Shown here: positions 9,265-49,962 of the stretch, piece by piece | How positions within the stretch are numbered: position 1 is the first letter of the stretch | How the letters are laid out: each line of letters starts with the position of its first letter | From: Bryobacterales bacterium | GTDB taxonomy: Bacteria; Acidobacteriota; Terriglobia; Bryobacterales; UBA6623 | Assembly (NCBI GenBank): GCA_026713545.1 | Contig: JAPOOG010000142.1 | Span: 1 to 64,000, forward strand | Direction of reading: 5' to 3' | DNA: 64,000 bases | The notes under the pieces: model-generated | Databases searched by the model: none | The model's input: only the letters and a program-made list of their open reading frames with translations | Told to the model about the DNA's origin: nothing | Translations under genes and position numbers: made by a program

Positions 9265-9347
9265 CGATCGCTCCTGAAAATGCGTCCAAGCCGCTGCCGC
9301 GAAATCCCCAATTGTACGACTTCGAAAGCCTGTGACACAATGTATCA

Positions 9348-9441
9348 CTAGTGAGGCTACACCTCAGACCGACAAGCAGGACCACGGATCTCCGCGTGAA
9401 CTTGACTCGAATGTGAACCTTGGCCAGGGACAAAAAACTAG
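9348..9441. repeat. Dispersed repeat family D, copy A
   Basis: A ~94-bp element bounded by CTAG at both ends (9348-9351 and 9438-9441). It starts with a short hairpin (TGAGG/CCTCA around CTACA). It contains GACCGACAAGCAGG, then ACTTGACTCGAATGTGAACC, and ends in an A-rich stretch. Two further copies lie at 21645-21829. The last base of its right CTAG is the first base of the GTG start of the next gene. Confidence 0.75.
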
Positions 9442-11592: not shown

Positions 11593-11835
11593 TGTGAAAC
11601 AAATCCCTGATCCAGCGGCGTTGACATCGGTCCGGATGTTTCCCGCTTGTATGATCCGCACTGGGGCGGAGGAAAAACTGATCCGTTCCGGAAAGACAAG
11701 AGGAACCAGCCTCTCGCGCAGGGTGTCTCTGTCCCCTTTTTCCCATTAGCCGCAGTCCTGTCGGCGCAATGGGAGAAGTTCCCCTGGTGAGCGAAGGAGA
11801 AGGCGAAGGGGGAAATTCCCCTTCGGAAAAAAGGT

Positions 11836-11859
11836 ACTGAAGCCCTTCAGTCTTTTTTT
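11836..11859 (+). terminator. Intrinsic-terminator-like hairpin, copy 1
   Basis: The arms ACTGAA (11836-11841) and TTCAGT (11846-11851) enclose GCCC and are followed by C and seven T. This has the layout of a short rho-independent terminator on the plus strand, 240 bp after the cytochrome c gene. The same hairpin and ~60 bp of context recur at 12195 and 28447. Confidence 0.5.
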
Positions 11860-12194
11860 CCGCCCCGGCCTGCTTAGCATGAGGACAGCGAGGCCGGAAT
11901 CCTGGCCCTCGCGAAGAAAAAAGCGGAAAAATCGAGGAAGGGAGATCACGCGCATGCGTCTGCGGCGAAGTTTGTTCTTCATGGCGCCGGCAACCCCGGG
12001 CGGCAGCACAAGCTGCAAGCCGCTCGCGCCAGCAACACGGCCTTTACGGTTCAGCGGTCGTCAGATATTTCTTCTGGAGCGAATCAGGCCCCATCCCCTG
12101 GTTTTCACGAAACACGAGTCACGAAACACGGCTTTTACGCATGGCGGCCATATCGCGTGCTTCTCCCGCCAGGTGAGAATTGATGCAGGACGGT

Positions 12195-12219
12195 ACTGAA
12201 GCCCTTCAGTCTTTTTTTT
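12195..12219 (+). terminator. Intrinsic-terminator-like hairpin, copy 2
   Basis: The arms ACTGAA/TTCAGT (12195-12200/12205-12210) with loop GCCC are followed by C and eight T. It sits inside element E copy 1 and would block transcription entering the aldehyde dehydrogenase gene from the left. Confidence 0.5.
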
Positions 12220-12480
12220 CCGCCCCGGCCTGCCTAGCATGAGGACAGCGAGGCTAATGATCGACGTGCCGTCGGCGCGGCGCTCGCTGTAGAGGCTGCC
12301 GCGCCCCCAAGAGGTTTTCACGAATCACGAGACACGAGTCACGAAACACGGCCTTTATGTTTTTCACGAGACACGAGTCACGAGACACGGCTTTTTTTCG
12401 CCGTGGGTGCGAAAGAGTCGGACAACCGAAATCCGTCGCCGGACCTCTGCGTCCTCCGACAAGTCATGGCTTCCCTGCCT

Positions 12481-12522
12481 ACCATTTCCCACTATTTCCC
12501 GGCATTTCCCGGCATTCTTCGG
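12481..12522 (+). repeat. 10-bp tandem array, copy 1
   Basis: Successive 10-bp units are ACCATTTCCC, ACTATTTCCC and GGCATTTCCC, followed by a degenerate GGCATTCTTC and GG. The unit start bases (ACC, ACT, GGC) parallel those of the array at 28711, but the unit core is TTCCC instead of TGTTC. Confidence 0.75.
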
Positions 12523-12699
12523 ATACCCCCCTCCCCCCGACGCGCACCGTCCGCCATTCTTGGTCGGCCTCACGACCAGCGCTGTTCGCAGCGGCTCCGG
12601 ATGCCCTCGGTTCGGAACTTCCTCCCCTGGCCTCCGCATCAGCGCTATCCTGTAGAAGCTTCTCCGCGGCGCGGCCCCCTCACAATCAGGAGCAAACCC

Positions 12700-14118: not shown

Positions 14119-14262
14119 GCTGCTCTCAGGACCCGCTCAACGCCATGGAATGGGTTCCGCCCCGATCTGTAGTTGCCCGGGTTGGGGCTGAATAGAATGG
14201 TAATGCCTGATGGTTTTCACGCACTTATTCGTCGCCTTTTCCCGATCCGGCTATCGCGCTAG
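14119..14262. other. Short spacer before repeat R1
   Basis: No gene is seen. With R1 this makes a ~310-bp gap between the aldehyde dehydrogenase and the PSCyt gene. No clear terminator was noticed. Confidence 0.3.
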
Positions 14263-14438
14263 CCTGCCTTTCTCGCCACGCGGCGAGGTGAAGTGCGGGA
14301 GAGGGCCGTCAGGACGAGGCGCGAGCCGCTTGGCGCGCGCAACATGGCCTTTAAGGTTTTTCACGAATCACGAGTCACGAGTCACGAAACACGGCCTTTT
14401 ATCGTGTGCTTCGGCCGTCGGGTGGTGAGACATGCAGG
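14263..14438 (+). repeat. Inverted-repeat-ended element R, copy 1 (chimeric)
   Basis: It begins CCTGCCTTTCTCGCCAC and ends GTGGTGAGACATGCAGG, near-perfect terminal inverted repeats. The left ~80 bp match other R copies. The centre is replaced by the AACATGGCCTTTAAGG and CACGAATCACGAGTCACGAG-type sequence of element E. The ATG in its right end is the start codon of the next gene, and GGTGAG in the same end sits at ribosome-binding distance. Confidence 0.75.
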
Positions 14439-17400
14439 TCAGGCTCCCACAACTCACCTCGCTGTTGCTCGCCGTGCTGGGCACGGCGGTCTCGAGCGCT
14501 CAAACCAGCTCCCAGGGCATCGAGTTCTTCGAAAAGAAGATCCGACCGGTTCTGATACAGCATTGCTACGCCTGCCATAGCGCCAAAACGCAGGCGATGG
14601 CGGAACTGAGGCTCGATTCCAAGGCGGGACTCGCGATGGGTGGCAGCCGGGGGCCGGCGATTGTCCCGGGTTCTCCGGAAACGAGCCTGTTACTCAAAGC
14701 GATCTCCTATCGTGATCCCGATCTGAAGATGCCGCCCACCGGAAGACTCGGTGCGGAGCAGATTGAGGATTTCACGACGTGGGTTCGTATGGGCGCCCCG
14801 GACCCTCGTGTCGACGAGGTGCCCCCATCGACTGCCCCCGTGTCGATCGACATCGAGGAGGGCCGCCGGTTCTGGTCGTTCCAGCCGATTCGAAACCCTG
14901 CGCCGCCATCGGTGCGCCGAACCGGCTGGCCGATCAATGAGGTGGACAACTTCATCCTGGCTGCACTCGAATCCAAAGGCCTGTCCCCTGCTGCGCCGGC
15001 CGACAAACGCACCCTCCTGCGGCGAGTCTCGTTTGACCTGATCGGCCTTCCGCCGACGCCCGAAGAGATCGGGGACTTTCTCGCCGACGACTCACCGCAA
15101 GCTTTCCAAAATGTCGTCGAGCGGTTGCTCGCATCCCCGCACTACGGAGAGCGCTGGGCGCGGCACTGGTTGGATCTTGTCCGCTACGCCGAAACGAACG
15201 GCCACGAATTCGACAACAACAAGCTGGATGCCTGGCGCTATCGCGACTACGTTATTCGCGCCTTCAACGACGATCTGCCCTATGACGAGTTCATGCGCGA
15301 ACAGATCGCCGGCGACCTGCTCGACCGGCCACGGCTCGCTACCGGCGGCTCTTCACTCGCTTCCCCGGTCGGTACCGGCATCTACTGGTTTGGAGAAGTC
15401 CTCAACAGCGCCACCGACTCGGTCAAGGCCCGCGCCGACCAGGTTGACAACCAGATCGACGTCATCGGCAAGGCGTTCCTGGGGCTCACCGTCGCCTGCG
15501 CCCGTTGCCACGATCACAAGTTCGACCCCATTCCCACGGCCGATTACTACGCGCTGGCCGGCGTCATGCACAGCACCGACATCCGCGAAGCCGTCGTCGA
15601 TTCACCCGAGCGCGAGAGGGAAATCGCCGGCTTGGCCGCCAAGCTTGCAGGAACGAATGATCAGATTCGCGAGCTGCTTGCCCCCGTGCCGCAGCGCCTT
15701 GCCGCGCGTCTGGCATCGGATCTGACGAGGGCGGCCGATCTGGTTGTCGGTGAAGACGGGTATCTCTCTGCCGAAGCGGACTCGCTGCACGTCGCCCGAG
15801 CGAACCAGTTCCGTCGAGCGCTGGAGGACCCTTCTCACCCCTTCTACCCGTTGATCCGCATCGCACGAAGCATCGCAAGAGGCGAGGCCGCCGATTTCGA
15901 TCGCGCCGTCGAAAAGGTCAAGGTCGGGATCAGAGCGAAGTCCGTCGAGGCAGCCTCGCGGCGCAACGACATCGAGTTCGAAGATTTCGAGAAGCCCGGC
16001 TTCCCATCGTGGATCGTTTCCGGGCAGGCTTTTGCCGGCGGCGCACGCTATCAGCCGGCCCCCGATCTGCCGCTCGCCGCCTACCGTGGAGAAGGAGTCG
16101 CCGACTCCTATCGAAACGGTTCCGACACTTTCGTAGGAAGCTTGACCTCTCGCAAATTCCGCATGCCCAGGCGCTGGCTGCACGTGCGGCTGACGGGGCG
16201 CGGCGGAAATCTCGTTCGAACGCGCCTGTCGGACGTTCGGCTGACGCTGGTCGCCGACAGCTACAAGAGCAAGGCTTTCGTGCCCACCGGCACGGACAGC
16301 TTCGAATGGCAGTCCGCGCGAATGACGACGCAGTTCGACCGCCTCTGTTACTTCGAGCTCGTGGACCGCAGCCGGGAGGGACACATTATCGTTGACCGCA
16401 TTGTTCTCTCTGACTCCAAAGAGCCGCCCGGTGATGGTCCCGTCGATGCGAGAGTCTCCTCCCTGCTGGAGCGAAAGGACATTCGATCGTCAGGCGGCCT
16501 GGCGGGCGCGTACCAGAAGCTGTTCGACACCGTTGTGAGCCAACAGCCAAGCGGTCGCGGCGCCGATCCGCTCTTTGCGGCCGTGTATCCGTTCCCGAGC
16601 CTGGAGCAGGCCGCCGTGATCCTCCCCGAAACCGCGCGAGTGCAACTTCGCAAACTCCAGCGCGACCGGACTTACCTCGTGAAGTCGATCCCGGAGTCTA
16701 CGTTCGCGATGAGCAGCCGCGACGAGGCTCCGCACGACGTCAGCATTCACCTGCGCGGCAATCACAAGAACCTTGGGAAAGAAGTGCCCCGCGGGTTCTT
16801 GCGTGTCATCTCGTCACCGCCGACCGGTAAAACGAGCAACGGCAGCGGCCGGATGCATGTCGCGCGACAACTCGCTCGGCCCGACAACCCTCTTCCCGCG
16901 CGAGTGATGGTCAACCGCATTTGGAAGCACCATTTCGGAGAAGGCATCGTCCGTTCGACCGACAATTTCGGTAATACCGGACAGCCCCCCACGCATCCAG
17001 CACTGCTCGACTACCTCGCGAAGCGGTTTATCGATAGCGGCTGGTCGATAAAAGCCATGCATCGCCTCATGTTGTTGAGTCGGACCTACCGCATGTCGGC
17101 TCAATCGACACCGCGAGCGCAAGCGGTTGATCCGGAAAACCGGCTGCTTCATCACATGCCCGTGCGGCGGCTCGAAGCGGAGATCATCCGCGATTCGCTG
17201 CTCGCCGTTTCAGGTTCGCTCGACCCGGCCCTTTACGGCCCCTCTGTCACACCGCACATCAGCGAGCATCAAGATGGACGCGGCAAGCCGCCAAGGCCCG
17301 GCCCGCTCGACGGCAAGAGCCGGCGCAGCCTCTACATCGGCGTGCGCCGCAACTTCCTGACGCCGCTGTTCCTGGCTTTTGATTACCCGCTCCCGATATC

Positions 17401-20112: not shown

Positions 20113-21642
20113 TCAGGCCCAGTACGTCCGGTCCAGGCTTCGGTACTGCACGGCCTCCGCGAGGTGGCTGACCATTACCTGGTCCGACCCGCCGAGGTCG
20201 GCGATGGTTCGGGCCACTTTGAGAATGCGGTCGTGGGCGCGCGCCGAAAGCCCCATTCGCTGTACCGCGTTCTCGAGCGTTCGCTCGCCTCTCTCATCCA
20301 GTTTGCAGAATTCGCGGATTTGCTTCGACGGCATGCGGGCGTTCGGATAGCCGCGGCGCATCTGCACTTGCCGCGCCGTTTCGGTGCGCCGTCGAATGGC
20401 TTCGGACGGTTCAGCAAGCTGGTCGGAGCGCAGTTCGCGGTACTTCACCGGCGGCACTTCGACATGGATGTCGATGCGGTCGAGCAGCGGTCCGCTGATC
20501 TTGCCGACGTAGCGCTGAATCTGCGCCGGCGTGCAGCGGCAGTCGCGGGTCGGGTCGCCGAAGTACCCGCAAGGACACGGGTTCATCGCCGCCACCAGCA
20601 TGAACAACGATGGGAACGTGAGGCTGAGGTCGGAGCGCACGATCGTGATCTCGCCGTCTTCCAGCGGCTGGCGAAGGAGTTCGAGAACGTTGCGAGGGAA
20701 TTCCGGGAACTCATCGAGAAACAGCACTCCGTTGTGAGCCAGGCTCACTTCACCCGGCTTCGCCATCCCCATGCCGCCGCCGACGAGTCCGGCGTTCGAA
20801 ATGCTGTGATGGGGCGACCGAAAGGGTCGCTCCCGGATGAGGCCGACATTCGACGCAAGCACTCCCGAGACGCTGTGCACCTTGGTCGTCTCCAGCGCTT
20901 CTTCGAAGGTCAACCCCGGAAGGATGCCCGGGAAGCGCTTGGCGAGCATCGTCTTGCCCGAGCCCGGCGGCCCGACCATCAGGACGTTGTGTCCGCCGGC
21001 GGCGGCGATCTCGAGAGCCCGCTTGGCGGTCTCTTGTCCTTTGACGTCGCGGAAATCATGGCTCGGGGCGCTCCACGTTGGGTCACCGTTGAGCGCATCG
21101 CCTCCGTTGACGGGTTTGAGCGATTCGGGCTTCTCGATCAGGCGGACGACATCGGCCAGATAGTCAACGCCGTAGACGTTCACCCCTTCGACCACGGCCG
21201 CTTCGACCGCGTTTTCCTTGGGGACGACGACATTCGGGACGCCTTTCTTCTTCGCGCAGACGGCCGTGGGCAGCGCCCCTCGCACCGGCCGCACGCCGCC
21301 ATCCAACGACAACTCACCGACGACAAGAAAGTCCTCCAGCGCTTTGGACGGGATCGCTCCCATCGCTCCCAGGATGCCCAGCGCTATCGGCAAATCGAAG
21401 CCGGCGCCTTCCTTGCGAATGTTGGCCGGGGCAAGATTCACCGTCACGGCCTTCGCCGGATAGCCGAATCCTGCGTTGATCAACGACGACTTGATGCGCT
21501 CGCGGCTCTCCCGCACCGCGGTATCCGGCAGACCGACCGTGATGAAGCTTTTCGGGTCGCCGAGGTACATGTCGACTTCCACGTCGATGTGCAGCGCATC
21601 GACGCCATAGATCGCCGCCGTCCGTGTCTTGAACAAAGGCAT
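20113..21642 (-). CDS. comM: YifB/ComM-family Mg chelatase-like AAA+ ATPase
   Basis: The 509-residue product has the N-terminal ChlI-like domain ([25 protein letters not shown]). An AAA+ core follows, with Walker [11 protein letters not shown] (~222), Walker [10 protein letters not shown] (~305) and a sensor/arginine region ([10 protein letters not shown]). A C-terminal Mg-chelatase helical domain ends the protein. ComM acts as a hexameric helicase that extends heteroduplex during natural transformation; in species without competence its role is unclear. The start is ATG 21642. The upstream frame runs through repeat D-B and is rejected. The repeat begins 3 bp before the start codon, so the leader and any ribosome-binding site (CGGAG, ~11 bases upstream) lie in repeat sequence. 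Confidence 0.92.
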
Positions 21643-21644
21643 GG

Positions 21645-21739
21645 CTAGCGAGGCTCCGCCTCCAACCAACATGCAGGATAACGGATCGCGGCGAGAACTT
21701 GACTCGAATGTCAACCTTGGCCAGCGACAAGAAAACTAG
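21645..21739. repeat. Dispersed repeat family D, copy B
   Basis: CTAG (21645) to CTAG (21739). The left hairpin GAGGC/GCCTC is intact. The central ACTTGACTCGAATGTCAACC block is one base different from the other copies. It shares its right CTAG with copy C, so the two form a head-to-tail tandem. Confidence 0.75.
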
Positions 21740-21829
21740 CGAGGAAGTCCTCAGACCGACAAGCAGGACAACGGATCGCCGCGTCAACTTGACTCGAATG
21801 TGAACCTTGGCAGCGAAGAAAAAAACTAT
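21736..21829. repeat. Dispersed repeat family D, copy C
   Basis: Starts at the shared CTAG (21736). The left hairpin is GAGG/CCTC around AAGT. GACCGACAAGCAGG and ACTTGACTCGAATGTGAACC are identical to copy A. It ends in an A-rich stretch and CTAT, where CTA is the stop codon of the small minus-strand gene. Confidence 0.75.
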
Positions 21830-22681: not shown

Positions 22682-22693
22682 GGAAGTCGTTAG

Positions 22694-22880
22694 CCTGCAT
22701 TTCTCACCACGCGGCGAGGCGAAGTGCGTGAGAGGGCCGTCAGGACGAGGCGCGCGCCGCTTGGCGCGCGCAGGCGTACTTGGCGGTACGTCGAGCACGG
22801 CAAGCAAGCGTTGCGAAGGAAAAGCGAAGTCATGGCGGTCGTATCGCGTGCTTCGGCCGTCGGGTGGTGAGAAATGCAGG
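22694..22880 (+). repeat. Inverted-repeat-ended element R, copy 2 (best-preserved)
   Basis: 187 bp with perfect 17-bp ends: CCTGCATTTCTCACCAC and GTGGTGAGAAATGCAGG. It is flanked on both sides by TTAG (22690-22693 and 22881-22884), a probable target-site duplication. Internally it has a GCGCGC/GCGCGC hairpin around CGCTTG (~22758-22775) and GTAC arms. It is non-coding. Confidence 0.8.
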
Positions 22881-22965
22881 TTAGTGCTCCTGTCTCGAAT
22901 TCTACCCCATCCCTGTTGCGAAAACGCCGACCACCACGAAGAAACCACACGGTAGACTATTGCTC

Positions 22966-25831: not shown

Positions 25832-25889
25832 GCGGTTGTCGGCGGGATGAAGCGGCCGGTCAGTCCTGGGCCGCCCCATGATCTTCTAG

Positions 25890-26054
25890 CCTGCATTTCT
25901 CACCACGTGGCGAGACGAAGTGCGTGAGAGGGCCGTCAGGACGAGGCGCGAGCCGCTTGGCGCCCGCAGGTGTACTTGAAGCACGGCAAGCAAGCGCAAC
26001 GAAGTCATGGCGGTCATATCGCGTGCTTCGGCCGTCGGGTGGTGAGAAATGCAG
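25890..26054 (+). repeat. Inverted-repeat-ended element R, copy 3
   Basis: 165 bp with ends CCTGCATTTCTCACCAC and GTGGTGAGAAATGCAG. Its internal hairpin is damaged (GCGCGAGCCGCTTGGCGCCC) and the GTAC section is shortened. It lies in the 485-bp gap 25832-26316; the remaining ~260 bp after it (26055-26316) show nothing I can identify. Confidence 0.78.
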
Positions 26055-26316
26055 CTCAGATCCGGTTGCAGAGCCGAAAGCATATGGTAGGTGATGTTGA
26101 AGAACCAATGCAGTCCGGTTGGATCGTTGTACCTTTCGTTGGACTGCTGGAACGGGCGTGCTCAGGTTCAGGCTGCTCTCCAAGACCCCGACGGGTAGCG
26201 GAAGACTTGCCGGAAGAACACTTGCCCTTCGGCCTCGCAGGGAAGCCGACCGGTGTTCGTCATGAGTCGATGCGGATTCTGATTTCCCTCTCCCGCTCGG
26301 AGTTCGACCTGTGGAG

Positions 26317-27499: not shown

Positions 27500-28132
27500 T
27501 CAGCGGCCAACGTTGAGAACCGGCGATGGGGCCTCTTCGGAGGGACGAAAGTGGAGCTGCAGAAAGTCGAGGAACGCTCTGCCTTTGGGACGGCCGTTAT
27601 CGCGGTCGAGCGCCATACGGAGCAGGAAGACCCATGTCGACAAGACATCGGAATCGCGAGTGCGCGCAAAGCCGGACTGTTCCTGTTCCTCTCGCAGAAA
27701 GCGCTCGATCCTCTGCCTGAGTTCATCGAAGATTCTCGCCGCGTAGAGGGAGTCCGGGCGCGAATCATAGTAGAGGCCGCTCTGGCGGGTCTTGTACGTG
27801 CGGATCAGCCCTTCGAGAGCAGTTCGGCTATCCGCATCGACGGTGCCGGTCGTCGACAATGACGCTTCCAGCAGGGCCTTTCCACACGTCTCGACCAACT
27901 TGGCGTGGTCCCGCAGGAAGCTCTGATCAATACGGATTTCCTTGTAAGGAAAGTCTTTGGGATCGAGGCCTCCGCTGTAGTCCCGTTCGCGGCTCTGCTG
28001 CAGGTAGCGGCAATCGAAGGGACAGGTGATCGTCACCTCTCGTTGCTCGCCGCAGCAGCGTTGGCAGATTTGTTTGTTCTTGGCGGGGCAGAAGCGCTTG
28101 GGCCTGCGCTTCTCGCAGATGGGGCAGGCCAT
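27500..28132 (-). CDS. Cysteine-rich putative zinc-binding protein, unknown function
   Basis: The ~210-residue product starting at ATG 28132 has eight cysteines within its first ~41 residues (CxxC-x8-C-x7-CxxCC-x9-CxxxC), suggesting one or two zinc sites. The rest (~60-210) is predicted helical and charged (RQRIERFLREEQEQS). An ATG at 28141 is in frame but overlaps a perfect TATAAT, so the start three codons later is favoured. The translated family is not one I can name; similar CPxC..CCG..CPxDC proteins occur in Acidobacteria. There is no signal peptide. It lies 76 bp upstream of the CbiX fusion gene on the same strand and could be co-transcribed with it. Confidence 0.65.
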   Translation of the reverse strand: MACPICEKRRPKRFCPAKNKQICQRCCGEQREVTITCPFDCRYLQQSRERDYSGGLDPKDFPYKEIRIDQSFLRDHAKLVETCGKALLEASLSTTGTVDADSRTALEGLIRTYKTRQSGLYYDSRPDSLYAARIFDELRQRIERFLREEQEQSGFARTRDSDVLSTWVFLLRMALDRDNGRPKGRAFLDFLQLHFRPSEEAPSPVLNVGR

Positions 28133-28139
28133 GGGTGCC

Positions 28140-28145
28140 ATTATA
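28140..28145 (-). promoter_or_regulatory. Consensus -10 box (TATAAT) seven bases before a start codon
   Basis: On the minus strand TATAAT is followed by seven bases and then ATG 28132, which implies a leaderless transcript for the cysteine-rich protein. No -35 element was recognised. Confidence 0.4.
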
Positions 28146-28446
28146 CGCGGCGGATCGGCGGAGCCCCGCGACGCGCCGGGGCTTGGGTCTGTCGGCGTAA
28201 TGAGAGTAGTGCCCCCGGGTGAACCAACGAGAACGTTCCCCTTCTAGCGAGAAAAGCTGGGAGGATGAACAAGACATTGGCGCTCACCGAGGATCTGTAA
28301 CAGGTACAACCCCGCTCGATGGAAGAGGTCGAACGCGGCGCATCGCGAATCATGAGACACGAATCACGAGTCACGAAACACGGCCTTTACGCATGGCGGC
28401 CATATTGCGTGCTTCCCCCGTCAGGTGAGAATTGATACATCAGGGT

Positions 28447-28471
28447 ACTGAAGCCCTTCAGTCTTTTTTTT
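28447..28471 (+). terminator. Intrinsic-terminator-like hairpin, copy 3
   Basis: The arms ACTGAA/TTCAGT (28447-28452/28457-28462) with loop GCCC are followed by C and eight T. It would insulate the NfeD operon from upstream plus-strand transcription. Confidence 0.5.
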
Positions 28472-28710
28472 CCGCCCCGGCCTTCCTAGCATGAGGACAG
28501 CGAGGCTGATGATCGACTTGCCGTCGGCGCGGAACTCGCTGTAGAGGCTGCCGCGCCATCAAGAGGTTTTCACGAATCACGAGACACGAGTCACGGCCTT
28601 TATGCTTTTCACGCGACACGAATCACGGCTTTTTTTCGCCGTGGGTGCGCAAGGGTGGCGCCACCGGAAACCGCCGTCCGGACCGTCGCCCGGTCACTGT
28701 TTTCCAGTTC

Positions 28711-28762
28711 GCCATTGTTCACCATTGTTCACTATTGTTCGCCATTGTTCGCCATTGTTCGG
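28711..28762 (+). repeat. 10-bp tandem array, copy 2
   Basis: Five consecutive 10-bp units: GCCATTGTTC, ACCATTGTTC, ACTATTGTTC, GCCATTGTTC and GCCATTGTTC. A degenerate unit precedes them (TTTCCAGTTC, 28701-28710) and GG follows. The period is close to one helical turn. There are no spacers, so it is not a CRISPR. Confidence 0.85.
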
Positions 28763-28967
28763 CAAAAAATATTGCCCCGCGGCAGTGTCCTTGCCCCGTC
28801 AGCCGTTCCCGGCCGGCCTCCCGGCGAAAGCCGTTCTCCGCAGCTCCCGTCGCTCTCCAGGCTCCTTGGGCTGTGGCAACCGCGAAAGGGACCCATGCCG
28901 AGAAAGGGAAAAGGTCTCGGTTGCGCAAACAGGGGAACGTTCTCGATTGCGTTGACAGCCAGGGGCT

Positions 28968-28997
28968 TTGGTCTTGATCGGAAGCGTATACTACAAT
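28968..28997 (+). promoter_or_regulatory. Candidate promoter for the NfeD operon
   Basis: TTGGTC (28968-28973) and TACAAT (28992-28997) are 18 bp apart; an overlapping TATACT lies at 28987. The start codon is 14 bases after the -10. A perfect TTGACA at 28952 is too far from either -10 to pair with it. Confidence 0.35.
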
Positions 28998-48140: not shown

Positions 48141-48216
48141 GGTTTCCCATGGGGACCGGTTGCCCCGGCCGCCTCGAAAGGTTCGTATCGCAAGGCTTGG
48201 AGATGGGCCGCCCCAG

Positions 48217-48393
48217 CCTGCATTTCTCACCACCCGACGGTCGAAGCACGCGATACGACCGCCATGACTTCGTTGCGCTTGCTTGCCGTGCTCAACGTAC
48301 GGTTCAAGTACGCCTGCGCGCGCCAAGCGGCGCGCGCCTCGTCCTGACGGCCCTCTCACCCACTTCGCCTCGCCACGTGGTGAGACATGCAGG
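48217..48393 (-). repeat. Inverted-repeat-ended element R, copy 4
   Basis: 177 bp, inverted relative to copies 1-3. The ends are CCTGCATTTCTCACCAC and GTGGTGAGACATGCAGG. The internal GCGCGC hairpin is intact. It abuts the stop codon of queA (48394) and lies upstream of the second PSCyt gene. Confidence 0.8.
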
Positions 48394-49446
48394 CTACACG
48401 ATCAGCATGCAGTCGCCGTAGGAGTAGAAGCGGTATTTCTCCCGGACGGCATGGTGGTAAGCGGCCAGCGTAAGATCCTTGCCCGCGAACGCCGCCACCA
48501 GCATGATCAGCGTGGACCTCGGTAAATGAAAATTGGTCAGCAGAGCGTCCACCGCGCGGAATGCAAAACCCGGATAGATGAACAGCGATGTCTTTCCGGA
48601 TGATGCCCGGAACACACCGCCACCCTCGCGAATGCCTTGCTCGAGAGTCCGTACCGCGGTCGTACCGACCGCGACGCGGCGCGCCGCATCATTGAGTGTC
48701 CGAGCGGCAGCCGCTGATATTTCGTAGCTTTCGGCGTGCATCTCGTGCTGCTCGACTTCATCGACTTCCACCGGCTGGAATGTGCCGCGTCCCACGTGGA
48801 GCGTGATCTCGACAGGCTTCACGCCTGCCGCCTTGAGTCGGTCGAGTCGTTCTCGCGTAAAGTGCAAACCGGCTGTGGGCGCCGCGGCCGCGCCGGGACG
48901 GCGGGCGAAAACGGTTTGATAACGCTCACGGTCAGAGATTTCGTCGGACCGCTTGATGTAAGGCGGCAGCGGCATGTGCCCAACACGTTCCAGCAATGCC
49001 GGGAAGTCCGGAACCGGAGCGAACTCGATCACCCGCAGGCCCCGCTCGCCACGGCCGACGATCGTTCCTTCAAGGCCCCCGGGAAAGTGGATGCACTCAC
49101 CCACTCGCAGCTTCCGGCCCGGTCGGACCAGGGCCTCCCAGCGATTGGGATCTTCCGAGACTCGCTGCAACAGAAGGGCCTCGACAATACCCGTAATCTT
49201 TGACTTCGAGGTTGTGGCGTGGACGCCCGCACGGCGCCCGTAGAGCCTGCAGGAGAGCACCATCGTGTTGTTCAGAACGAGCGCGTCTCCTCGCTCAAGA
49301 AAGCCGTGCAGGTCAGCGAAAGACAGATCCGACCAAGTTCCCGCCGTCCGGTCAACTACGAGCATGCGGCTCGATGCTCGATCGGGGAGGGGGCTTTGTG
49401 CAATCAGCTCCTGGGGGAGCTCGTAGTCAAAATCTGAGACGCGCAA
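48394..49446 (-). CDS. queA: S-adenosylmethionine:tRNA ribosyltransferase-isomerase
   Basis: The 350-residue enzyme transfers and isomerises the ribosyl part of SAM onto 7-aminomethyl-7-deazaguanine in tRNA, making epoxyqueuosine. The motifs are DFDYELPQELIAQ at the start, RGDALVLNNT, RPGRKLRVGE, YQTVFA, AAPTAGLHFT, VGRGTFQPV, VGTTAVRTLE and TNFHLPRSTLIMLVAAFAG. The start is TTG 49446, as no ATG or GTG fits the conserved N-terminus. The stop is created 1 bp from the end of repeat R4. No other queuosine gene is in the window. Confidence 0.95.
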   Translation of the reverse strand: MRVSDFDYELPQELIAQSPLPDRASSRMLVVDRTAGTWSDLSFADLHGFLERGDALVLNNTMVLSCRLYGRRAGVHATTSKSKITGIVEALLLQRVSEDPNRWEALVRPGRKLRVGECIHFPGGLEGTIVGRGERGLRVIEFAPVPDFPALLERVGHMPLPPYIKRSDEISDRERYQTVFARRPGAAAAPTAGLHFTRERLDRLKAAGVKPVEITLHVGRGTFQPVEVDEVEQHEMHAESYEISAAAARTLNDAARRVAVGTTAVRTLEQGIREGGGVFRASSGKTSLFIYPGFAFRAVDALLTNFHLPRSTLIMLVAAFAGKDLTLAAYHHAVREKYRFYSYGDCMLIV

Positions 49447-49962
49447 GAACTGGTTACCGCCTGTGCCGGGTTCGCGCGCCGCTAACGGGTCTTGATGCCA
49501 GTTCCGGCGAGGCGAGCCGGACGGTTTGCTCCACAGCCGGGCCGCCGAGGCCGGTATAGCAGCACCCGAAGATTCTCACCCGCTGCCCGGTACGTCTTTC
49601 CGTAAGTGCGGCAACCTCCTATATCGAGGCTCCGCATTCTCTTGGAACGAGACTAGCACAACGGCCTGCCGCCCTTGCTTGGGCCTGCAACACGATTATG
49701 CGCATGTTGCAGGGCTTTCGAGGCTGAGCTGTACGCCTGACTGCTCTGGTTTGAACAGCACGGCGAGCAAGCGCAACGAAGTCATGGCGGTCGTATCGCG
49801 TGCTTCGACCGTCGGTTGGTGAGACATGCAGGCTAAGCCACATCTCCGCATGTCTCGGCACGGCCTGATCTCTTTCAAGCTGTTACCCTTGGATGGGTGC
49901 CGGCTTCGCCTTCCCGTTTCGCCAAAGACAGTCTCTCTATCTCCGCAAGCAGATAAGGCCCA
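49447..49962. other. Spacer with inverted repeat and partial R element
   Basis: 516 bp between divergent queA and permease genes. It contains a 9-bp inverted repeat CCTGCAACA/TGTTGCAGG (49684-49692/49705-49713) and the right half of an R element (49754-49832). No gene was seen. Both promoters should lie here, but I could not place them. Confidence 0.45.
49754..49832 (+). repeat. Element R, partial copy 5 (right half)
   Basis: It matches the right ~78 bp of R copies: AGCACGGC.AGCAAGCGCAA, GTCATGGCGGTCGTATCGCG, TGCTTCG.CCGTCGG, and the terminal GTTGGTGAGACATGCAGG. The left half is missing. Confidence 0.7.

What the first reader, a model, noticed from the sequence alone, without database searches (positions are those of the whole stretch)
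28341..28762. 421-bp composite repeat (element E) in two near-equal-length copies before unrelated genes
12102-12522 and 28341-28762 align through the same seven modules in the same order, at nearly the same length (421 and 422 bp). Both lie ~180-250 bp upstream of a protein gene start (aldehyde dehydrogenase; NfeD operon). Modules include half of another repeat family, a terminator hairpin and a 10-bp tandem array. I know of no described bacterial element with this layout. The copies may be spreading 5' insulator/regulatory cassettes.
Basis: partly seen in the sequence, partly recalled or inferred. Interest (0 to 1): 0.75.

Follow-up and report, generated by a model that had tools for sequence, protein, structure and literature searches.

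The report
Promoter-targeted, mosaic, non-autonomous transposon family
The 421-bp repeat is the inside of a larger, scrambled mobile element of a probably sponge-associated bacterium; elements of this family and a recent relative insert next to the "-35" promoter signal in front of genes, a target preference I found no report of for this kind of transposon.

Summary
E1 and E2 share modules in the same order (93% over 238 bp), but the last ~80 bp (10-bp arrays) differ in sequence. The unit is misdrawn. E2 is the middle of a 768-bp element (28190-28957) with terminal inverted repeats and a decayed 15/16-bp target duplication. E1 sits behind the same left end (11759) and has lost its right end. 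The host is a Bryobacterales-like draft genome: about 77 right ends and 121 copies of the terminator core, and 52 and 42 in a sister species. Across 52 elements the flanks peak sharply at a 15-bp duplication, and the right end faces a gene start in 34 of 36 scorable cases. Recent insertion sequences with related ends in two relatives sit directly upstream of TTGACA (19/24), often with a -10 at normal spacing. The ends look like the IS1202 (ISNCY) family, whose long-duplication members had no known target (PMC10132070). Interiors follow a loose grammar and turn over: both E blocks are absent from the sister's same loci, while a terminator-like 26-mer is hyperconserved. Best reading: non-autonomous relatives of a promoter-targeting IS1202-type element. 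Insulator function is undemonstrated. The mobilising transposase was not recovered.

The parts
28190..28957 (+). Complete TIR-bounded non-autonomous element that contains E2 (768 bp), oriented LE to RE toward the NfeD ORF
   Evidence: LE and RE profiles; flanked by GCCGGGGCTTGGGTC / GCCAGGGGCTTTGGTC
28175..28189 (.). Left copy of decayed 15-bp target-site duplication (GCCGGGGCTTGGGTC)
   Evidence: Direct reading; 15-bp rule from 52 pairs and exact duplications of the recent IS
28958..28973 (.). Right copy of the duplication (GCCAGGGGCTTTGGTC; one base longer, one substitution)
   Evidence: Direct reading
28190..28247 (+). Left end LE: TGTC plus two subterminal repeats (transposase-binding-like)
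   Evidence: nhmmer LE profile, 41 bits
28868..28957 (-). Right end RE: TGTCAACGCAATCGAGAACGTTCCCC plus second repeat; outer tip reads outward GTTGACA
   Evidence: nhmmer RE profile; sequence model R1
28974..28979 (+). TTGATC, -35-like hexamer directly after the right duplication; the -10-like TACAAT at 28992 is not at standard spacing from it
   Evidence: Direct reading; family rule
28341..28382 (+). Heptamer array a (CACGARW units) of E2
   Evidence: TRF
28392..28440 (+). Module B2: half of the second repeat family (MITE-2)
   Evidence: Matches 26006-26041 and 22831-22866
28445..28470 (+). Module T: terminator-like hairpin core GTACTGAAGCCCTTCAGTCTTTTTTT
   Evidence: 121 copies in the own genome; 1.8% mismatches versus 11.3% in the neighbouring 22-mer
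28501..28560 (+). Module C
   Evidence: Module BLAST; limits approximate
28570..28630 (+). Second heptamer array
28631..28705 (+). Module F (GCCGTGGGTGCGC.. to ..GTCACTGTTTTCC)
   Evidence: Module BLAST; limits approximate
28707..28761 (+). Module H: 10-bp tandem array, unit GTTCGCCATT
   Evidence: TRF
28762..28835 (+). Module I (AAAAAATATTGCCC..CAGTGTCC..)
   Evidence: Module BLAST; limits approximate
11759..12612 (+). Element that contains E1; left end intact, right end (RE) not found, so the end coordinate is approximate
   Evidence: LE profile, 56 bits at 11759; RE-proximal module I-like sequence readable to about 12612
11759..11816 (+). Left end LE of the E1 element
11834..11859 (+). First T module of the E1 element, just inside LE
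12102..12522 (+).
12193..12218 (+). Second T module, inside E1
12483..12516 (+). 10-bp array of E1, unit CATTTCCCGG
   Evidence: TRF

Best explanation
E1 and E2 are interior segments of two members of a large family of non-autonomous transposable elements. SHOWN: elements (0.2-2.6 kb) are bounded by inverted ends LE (TGTCGGCGCAATGGGAGAAGTTCCCC..) and RE (TGTCAACGCAATATAGAACGTTCCCC..), with one or two subterminal repeats each, and as a set they are flanked by 15-bp duplications. SHOWN: where both flanking genes could be scored, the right end nearly always faces a gene start, and a TTGACA-like hexamer follows the duplication far more often than chance. SHOWN: recent, high-copy insertion sequences with related ends in two relatives sit directly upstream of -35-like boxes, and in the three copies that could be joined duplicate exactly 15 bp. 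INFERRED: an IS1202 (ISNCY)-type DDE transposase recognises the -35 hexamer, or a protein bound there, cuts with a 15-nt stagger just upstream and so lands in front of genes while leaving the core promoter intact. INFERRED: elements without a transposase were mobilised in trans by such an IS. INFERRED: the interior, which follows a loose grammar (LE-T-[C/K/B1/a/D]-F-H-I-RE), is rebuilt after insertion by recombination or conversion among the roughly 100 dispersed copies, which is how E1 and E2 came to share a block. INFERRED: the T module terminates transcription that enters from the left side.
For: Ends in both E-containing elements and 52 LE..RE pairs. Flank identity peaks at length 15 (0.471; 0.23-0.33 at lengths 5 to 14 and 17 to 20), with 14/52 pairs at >=11/15 identical against 0.1% of shuffled pairs. 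Exact 15-bp duplications of the recent IS in 3/3 joinable pairs. TTGACA at duplication+1: recent IS 19/24 on the LE side (elsewhere mean 1.9), old elements z about 5 on both sides; TANNNT at 17-18 bp in 13/24 recent LE flanks and at exactly 17 bp in 10/45 old RE flanks (means 0.6 and 1.0). Orientation: RE faces a gene start 34/36, p=2e-8; recent IS LE faces a gene start 19/22, p=9e-4. An IS in the congener G002 with ends TGTC plus two repeats and an ISNCY_2 transposase, 364 bits against cut-off 250. IS1202-family definition: TGT..ACA ends, an extra binding site near each end, duplication classes including 16-17 bp (PMC10132070; PMC10045372). Interior turnover at shared insertion sites, e.g. 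877 versus 223 bp and 1194 versus 542 bp; E blocks absent from the sister's NfeD and ALDH loci. Grammar. T conserved at 1.8% versus 11.3% mismatch.
Against: The transposase of the multi-copy IS was not recovered because its interior is missing from the draft genomes. The ISNCY transposase found belongs to a different IS whose ends are only similar and whose duplication could not be read, and its closest plasmid relatives are Rhizobium ISNCY elements, a kind PMC10132070 lists with short duplications. Polarity is inconsistent: recent IS face the promoter with LE, old elements with RE. Many old pairs have no recognisable duplication (31 of 52 below 9/15). E2's own -35-like TTGATC has no -10 at standard spacing. 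The gene calls come from a simple codon-usage caller. Some G000/G001 pairs are the same ancestral insertion, so the 52 are not all independent (the promoter test was made on 45 after collapsing). Terminator function is untested, and its stem is weak (-4.9 kcal/mol).
Confidence: 0.78

Rival explanations
1. E is an autonomous regulatory cassette (5' insulator/attenuator) kept upstream of genes by selection, and the position near gene starts reflects function, not target choice.
For: The T module is hyperconserved; elements lie upstream of gene starts.
Against: The exact 15-bp offset from a TTGACA box, also in recent IS of a genome without T, needs a targeting mechanism. Interiors, and both E blocks, differ between sister genomes at the same loci.
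Confidence: 0.1
2. E1 and E2 are a simple local segmental duplication, of no wider meaning.
For: The full seven-module composite with B2 was found only in these two copies, 16 kb apart; neither is in the sister genome.
Against: Both sit in separate TIR frames with a different left context, and most of their modules recur in the same order in dozens of other elements.
Confidence: 0.05
3. The elements were mobilised by another kind of transposase with a 15-bp stagger, such as a casposase (Cas1) or an IS481 sensu stricto.
For: Casposons were considered because some are reported with about 15-bp duplications (general knowledge; the papers located were not read); IS481 members generate 2-15 bp (PMC10045372).
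Against: TGT..ACA ends with a second repeat at each end match the IS1202 family description, and an ISNCY_2 IS with matching end architecture exists in a congener. Cas1 was not searched for.
Confidence: 0.15
4. The interior grew by repeated nested insertion of whole elements followed by decay of their ends, not by recombination or conversion.
For: Reiterated T..F-H-I blocks; half of a second MITE family is nested inside.
Against: Internal T copies are mostly preceded by heptamers instead of a buried LE.
Confidence: 0.25

Closest known systems
IS1202 family (ISNCY; Harmer, Pong and Hall 2023, PMC10132070)
   Same: TGT..ACA ends, imperfect TIRs with an additional repeat near each end, precise target choice at a fixed distance from a protein-binding motif in one orientation, long duplications in one subgroup (16-28 bp).
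   Different: No transposase in the elements; target is the promoter -35 region instead of dif/Xer sites; duplication 15 bp. That paper found no target for the long-duplication group.
BOX elements of Streptococcus pneumoniae (PMC3049150)
   Same: Modular, MITE-like repeats with TIRs and duplications, size set by module number (67-637 bp).
   Different: Different sequence and modules; in the passages read, that paper reports no targeting of promoters.
SPRITE repeats of Streptococcus pneumoniae (PMC3049150)
   Same: Repeat resembling a Rho-independent terminator.
   Different: SPRITE is a stand-alone repeat near 3' ends of genes; here T is one module near the left end of a TIR element.
MITEs in general
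   Same: Short elements with TIRs and duplications that share ends with an IS; minimal members here are 202-229 bp.
   Different: Many members are far larger and mosaic, and three carry gene cargo.

Membership tests
IS1202 family insertion sequence | Ends 5'-TGT..ACA-3' with imperfect TIRs | tested here: met
   LE TGTCGG.., RE TGTCAACG.. in 52 pairs
IS1202 family insertion sequence | Additional transposase-binding-like repeat near each end | tested here: met
   Repeats of the type GCAANNNGAANGTTCCCC at LE and RE; some REs keep only one. Binding itself not tested
IS1202 family insertion sequence | Characteristic duplication length (long subgroup 16-28 bp; 15-17 bp class in PMC10045372) | tested here: met
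   15 bp in old elements and recent IS; one base below the range of PMC10132070
IS1202 family insertion sequence | Encodes a DDE transposase of the family | tested here: not met
   No transposase ORF inside the elements over 900 bp whose ORFs were read, so they are not IS themselves but possible non-autonomous derivatives
IS1202 family insertion sequence | The partner IS with matching ends encodes such a transposase | tested here: inconclusive
   The multi-copy IS of G002/G004 is collapsed out of the assemblies; a related-ended IS in G002 has an ISNCY_2 transposase
MITE | TIRs, target duplication, no transposase, ends shared with an IS | tested here: met
   the ends are related to, not identical with, those of the recent IS
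MITE | Small uniform size | tested here: not met
   202-2643 bp
BOX element | boxA-boxB-boxC sequence modules | not tested
   No BOX model was run. Resemblance is of layout only; BOX repeats are reported as almost confined to pneumococcus and its close relatives (PMC3049150)
Rho-independent terminator (module T) | Stem-loop followed by a U-run on the transcript strand | tested here: met
   Hairpin -4.9 kcal/mol then U8
Rho-independent terminator (module T) | Stops transcription | not testable with these tools
   Needs RNA-seq or an in vitro assay

The most novel reading that the evidence does not exclude
Long-duplication IS1202-type transposases are 'promoter hunters': they recognise the -35 hexamer, or sigma-70 RNA polymerase bound there, and insert 15 bp upstream in one orientation. 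They seeded this lineage with about a hundred mosaic elements placed in front of genes, most carrying a conserved terminator.
Probability: 0.5. Interest if true: 0.82.

Novelty: new variant of a known kind. Interest (0 to 1): 0.66.

Why it matters
Few transposons choose a functional site at a fixed distance. For the IS1202 family the short-duplication members hunt dif/Xer sites, while the targets of the long-duplication group were left open (PMC10132070). The data here give that kind of element a concrete, testable target: the region immediately upstream of the promoter -35 box. Such targeting spares coding sequence and the core promoter, places elements where they could rewire transcription, and may explain why a genome can carry roughly a hundred copies. 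The mosaic interiors, turning over within fixed frames between two species 96% identical at the two gene segments compared, offer a natural record of recombination among dispersed bacterial repeats.

Tried and rejected
E as a CRISPR, integron or named RNA element: no Rfam match in the window besides a tRNA. IS21 as the partner: suspected from repeated subterminal motifs, but no matching ends were found beside the two full-length IstB loci fetched. MITE-2 as the carrier of E: only half of it is nested inside. Finding the IS interior in viral contigs or across the phylum (396 genomes): no match. A solo RE at G002:C45 carried a cytochrome-like ORF, not a transposase. Other rve proteins of G002/G004 (L331, L332, L334) lacked these ends. 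Plasmid and phage relatives of the ISNCY transposase that were listed are largely Rhizobium, ISKpn21, ISEsa1 or Acinetobacter types, not recognisably long-duplication members, so promoter targeting was not tested outside this bacterial family. Literature searches for a promoter-targeting IS with a 15-bp duplication found none; that library lacks most subscription journals.

Full report
1. The observation. A 238-nt stretch aligns without gaps at 93% (12106-12343 versus 28358-28595) and a further 67 nt at 81%; BLAST gives 87% over 327 query positions. The modules are in the same order. The 10-bp arrays at the right are in the same place but have different units, CATTTCCCGG (12483-12516) and GTTCGCCATT (28707-28761), so the near-equal length is partly accidental. 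In the own genome (5.6 Mb, 170 contigs) the E2 block finds 93 matches at E<=0.001. Among 60 relatives only one congener, G001, matches; G001 gives the same hits and coordinates as G061, the genome reached through the Bryobacterales MAG RHO3_bin_12. That the host lives with a sponge is inferred from this record's name only. The hairpin core GTACTGAAGCCCTTCAGTCTTTTTTT occurs 121 times in G000, 42 times in G001 and not at all in the congener G002. The exact series with the half repeat B2 next to the hairpin is seen only in E1 and E2 among the 108 core copies read.

2. The unit is larger. Reading outward from the core copies showed a recurring left sequence, TGTCGGCGCAATGGGAGAAGTTCCCCTGGTGAGC, and a different inverted right sequence, TGTCAACGCAATATAGAACGTTCCCC. 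Profiles of these ends found 52 inward-facing LE..RE pairs in the fetched loci of G000 and G001, spanning 202 to 2643 bp. E2 lies inside such an element, 28190-28957. E1 lies behind the same left end at 11759; its right end was not found. A sequence model of the right end counts about 77 in G000 and 52 in G001, and none in G002-G007.

3. It transposed. Flank identity, averaged over the 52 pairs, is 0.471 at a duplication length of 15 and 0.23-0.33 at lengths 5 to 14 and 17 to 20; 14 pairs have at least 11 of 15 identical, against 0.1% of shuffled pairs. For E2 the two copies are GCCGGGGCTTGGGTC and GCCAGGGGCTTTGGTC. G002 and the more distant G004 carry recent IS copies with related ends, found at contig ends, so their interiors are missing. 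The three G002 copies whose two flanks could be joined all have exact 15-bp duplications.

4. Where it lands. In the recent IS, the six bases after the duplication on the LE side match TTGACA in at least 4 of 6 positions in 19 of 24 copies, against a mean of 1.9 at other positions; a TANNNT -10 at 17-18 bp follows in 13. In the old elements TTGACA stands out at the same position on both sides (z about 5), with a -10 at exactly 17 bp on the RE side in 10 of 45 flanks (mean elsewhere 1.0). A codon-usage gene caller shows the RE facing a gene start in 34 of 36 G000 elements with both flanks scorable (p=2e-8) and the LE of the recent IS facing one in 19 of 22 (p=9e-4). The polarity therefore differs between old and recent elements; this is not explained. 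For E2 itself a TTGATC follows the duplication, but the nearest -10 (TACAAT, 28992) is not at the standard distance.

5. Which transposase. The elements carry none (ORFs read in those over 900 bp). IS21 was suspected and no matching ends were found at the IstB loci. A G002 locus (L335) holds an IS whose ends are TGTC plus two GCCAAGTAGAAATGTCC-type repeats each, RE starting TGTCAACGC like ours, with an rve transposase that matches NCBIfam ISNCY_2 at 364 bits against a cut-off of 250. The IS1202 family is described with TGT..ACA ends, an additional binding site near each end and target choice at a fixed distance and orientation; its long-duplication members had no detected target (PMC10132070), and a 15-17 bp class is noted in PMC10045372. 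The assignment is an inference: the transposase of the multi-copy IS was not recovered, and the ISNCY protein found has its closest plasmid relatives at about 40% identity in Rhizobium, a kind listed with short duplications.

6. The interior. Module calls in 53 elements give a loose grammar, LE-T-[C, K, B1, heptamers, D]-F-H-I-RE, with T in 48, F in 42 and I in 41; long elements repeat inner blocks. At insertion sites shared by G000 and G001 the ends and flanks align but interiors differ: 877 versus 223 bp, 745 versus 210, 1194 versus 542. The sister genome, 96% identical in the two gene segments compared, has neither E block. Its NfeD locus has only a MITE-2 copy ending at nearly the same base where RE ends in G000. 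Its ALDH locus keeps only the right part, with a different 10-bp unit. Recombination or conversion among dispersed copies is the simplest reading; nested insertion with loss of ends is the rival. Core copies found through an independent downstream anchor have 1.8% mismatches in the 26-mer T against 11.3% in the neighbouring 22-mer, T being recognisable in 96 of 98. That points to constraint or preferential conversion. A terminator role is plausible and untested. Three large elements contain gene cargo: FitA-like antitoxin plus PIN toxin, ORF6N plus an FGE-sulfatase fragment, and a DUF1016_N fragment.

7. Verdict. The repeat is real but is not the unit, and an insulator cassette is not shown. 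The best explanation is a family of mosaic, non-autonomous relatives of an IS1202-type element that inserts directly upstream of -35 boxes. As a class it is a new variant of a known kind. The target preference is the surprising part and can be tested directly.

Noticed in passing
window 14260-14441, 22691-22883, 25887-26058, 48214-48396; partial at 49757-49835: A second MITE-like family (MITE-2), about 170-195 bp, with ends TAGCCTGCATTTCTCACCAC; no clear target duplication by eye. Halves of it are nested in E1 and E2.
   Followed up: partly
L329 (G001 NfeD locus) versus window 28130-28960: In the sister genome a MITE-2 copy occupies the site and ends at nearly the same base where RE ends in G000, while LE, RE and the left flank are gone.
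   Followed up: partly
all old LE..RE pairs versus recent IS in G002/G004: Polarity relative to the promoter is reversed: old elements face it with RE, recent IS with LE.
   Followed up: partly
L143, L035, L177: Large elements carry cargo genes: FitA-like/PIN toxin-antitoxin pair, ORF6N protein with an FGE-sulfatase fragment, DUF1016_N fragment.
   Followed up: partly
modules H, e.g. window 12483-12516 and 28707-28761; L122, L031, L148: 10-bp arrays, one helical turn per unit, with locus-specific unit sequences that look homogenised within an array; at the ALDH locus the unit differs between sister genomes.
   Followed up: partly
G002:C25 positions 43-103 (L240): Two left ends 15 bp apart facing away from each other: possibly an insertion next to another copy's tip, as expected if the tip (TGTC..) mimics the target, or an assembly artefact.
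   Followed up: no
window 9339-9437, 21636-21734, 21726-21824: Another repeat family of about 90-100 bp (D5), partly in tandem, ending in A-runs.
   Followed up: no
L163 (G000:C151): Three near-identical tandem T-containing units about 193 bp apart with a variant downstream sequence.
   Followed up: no
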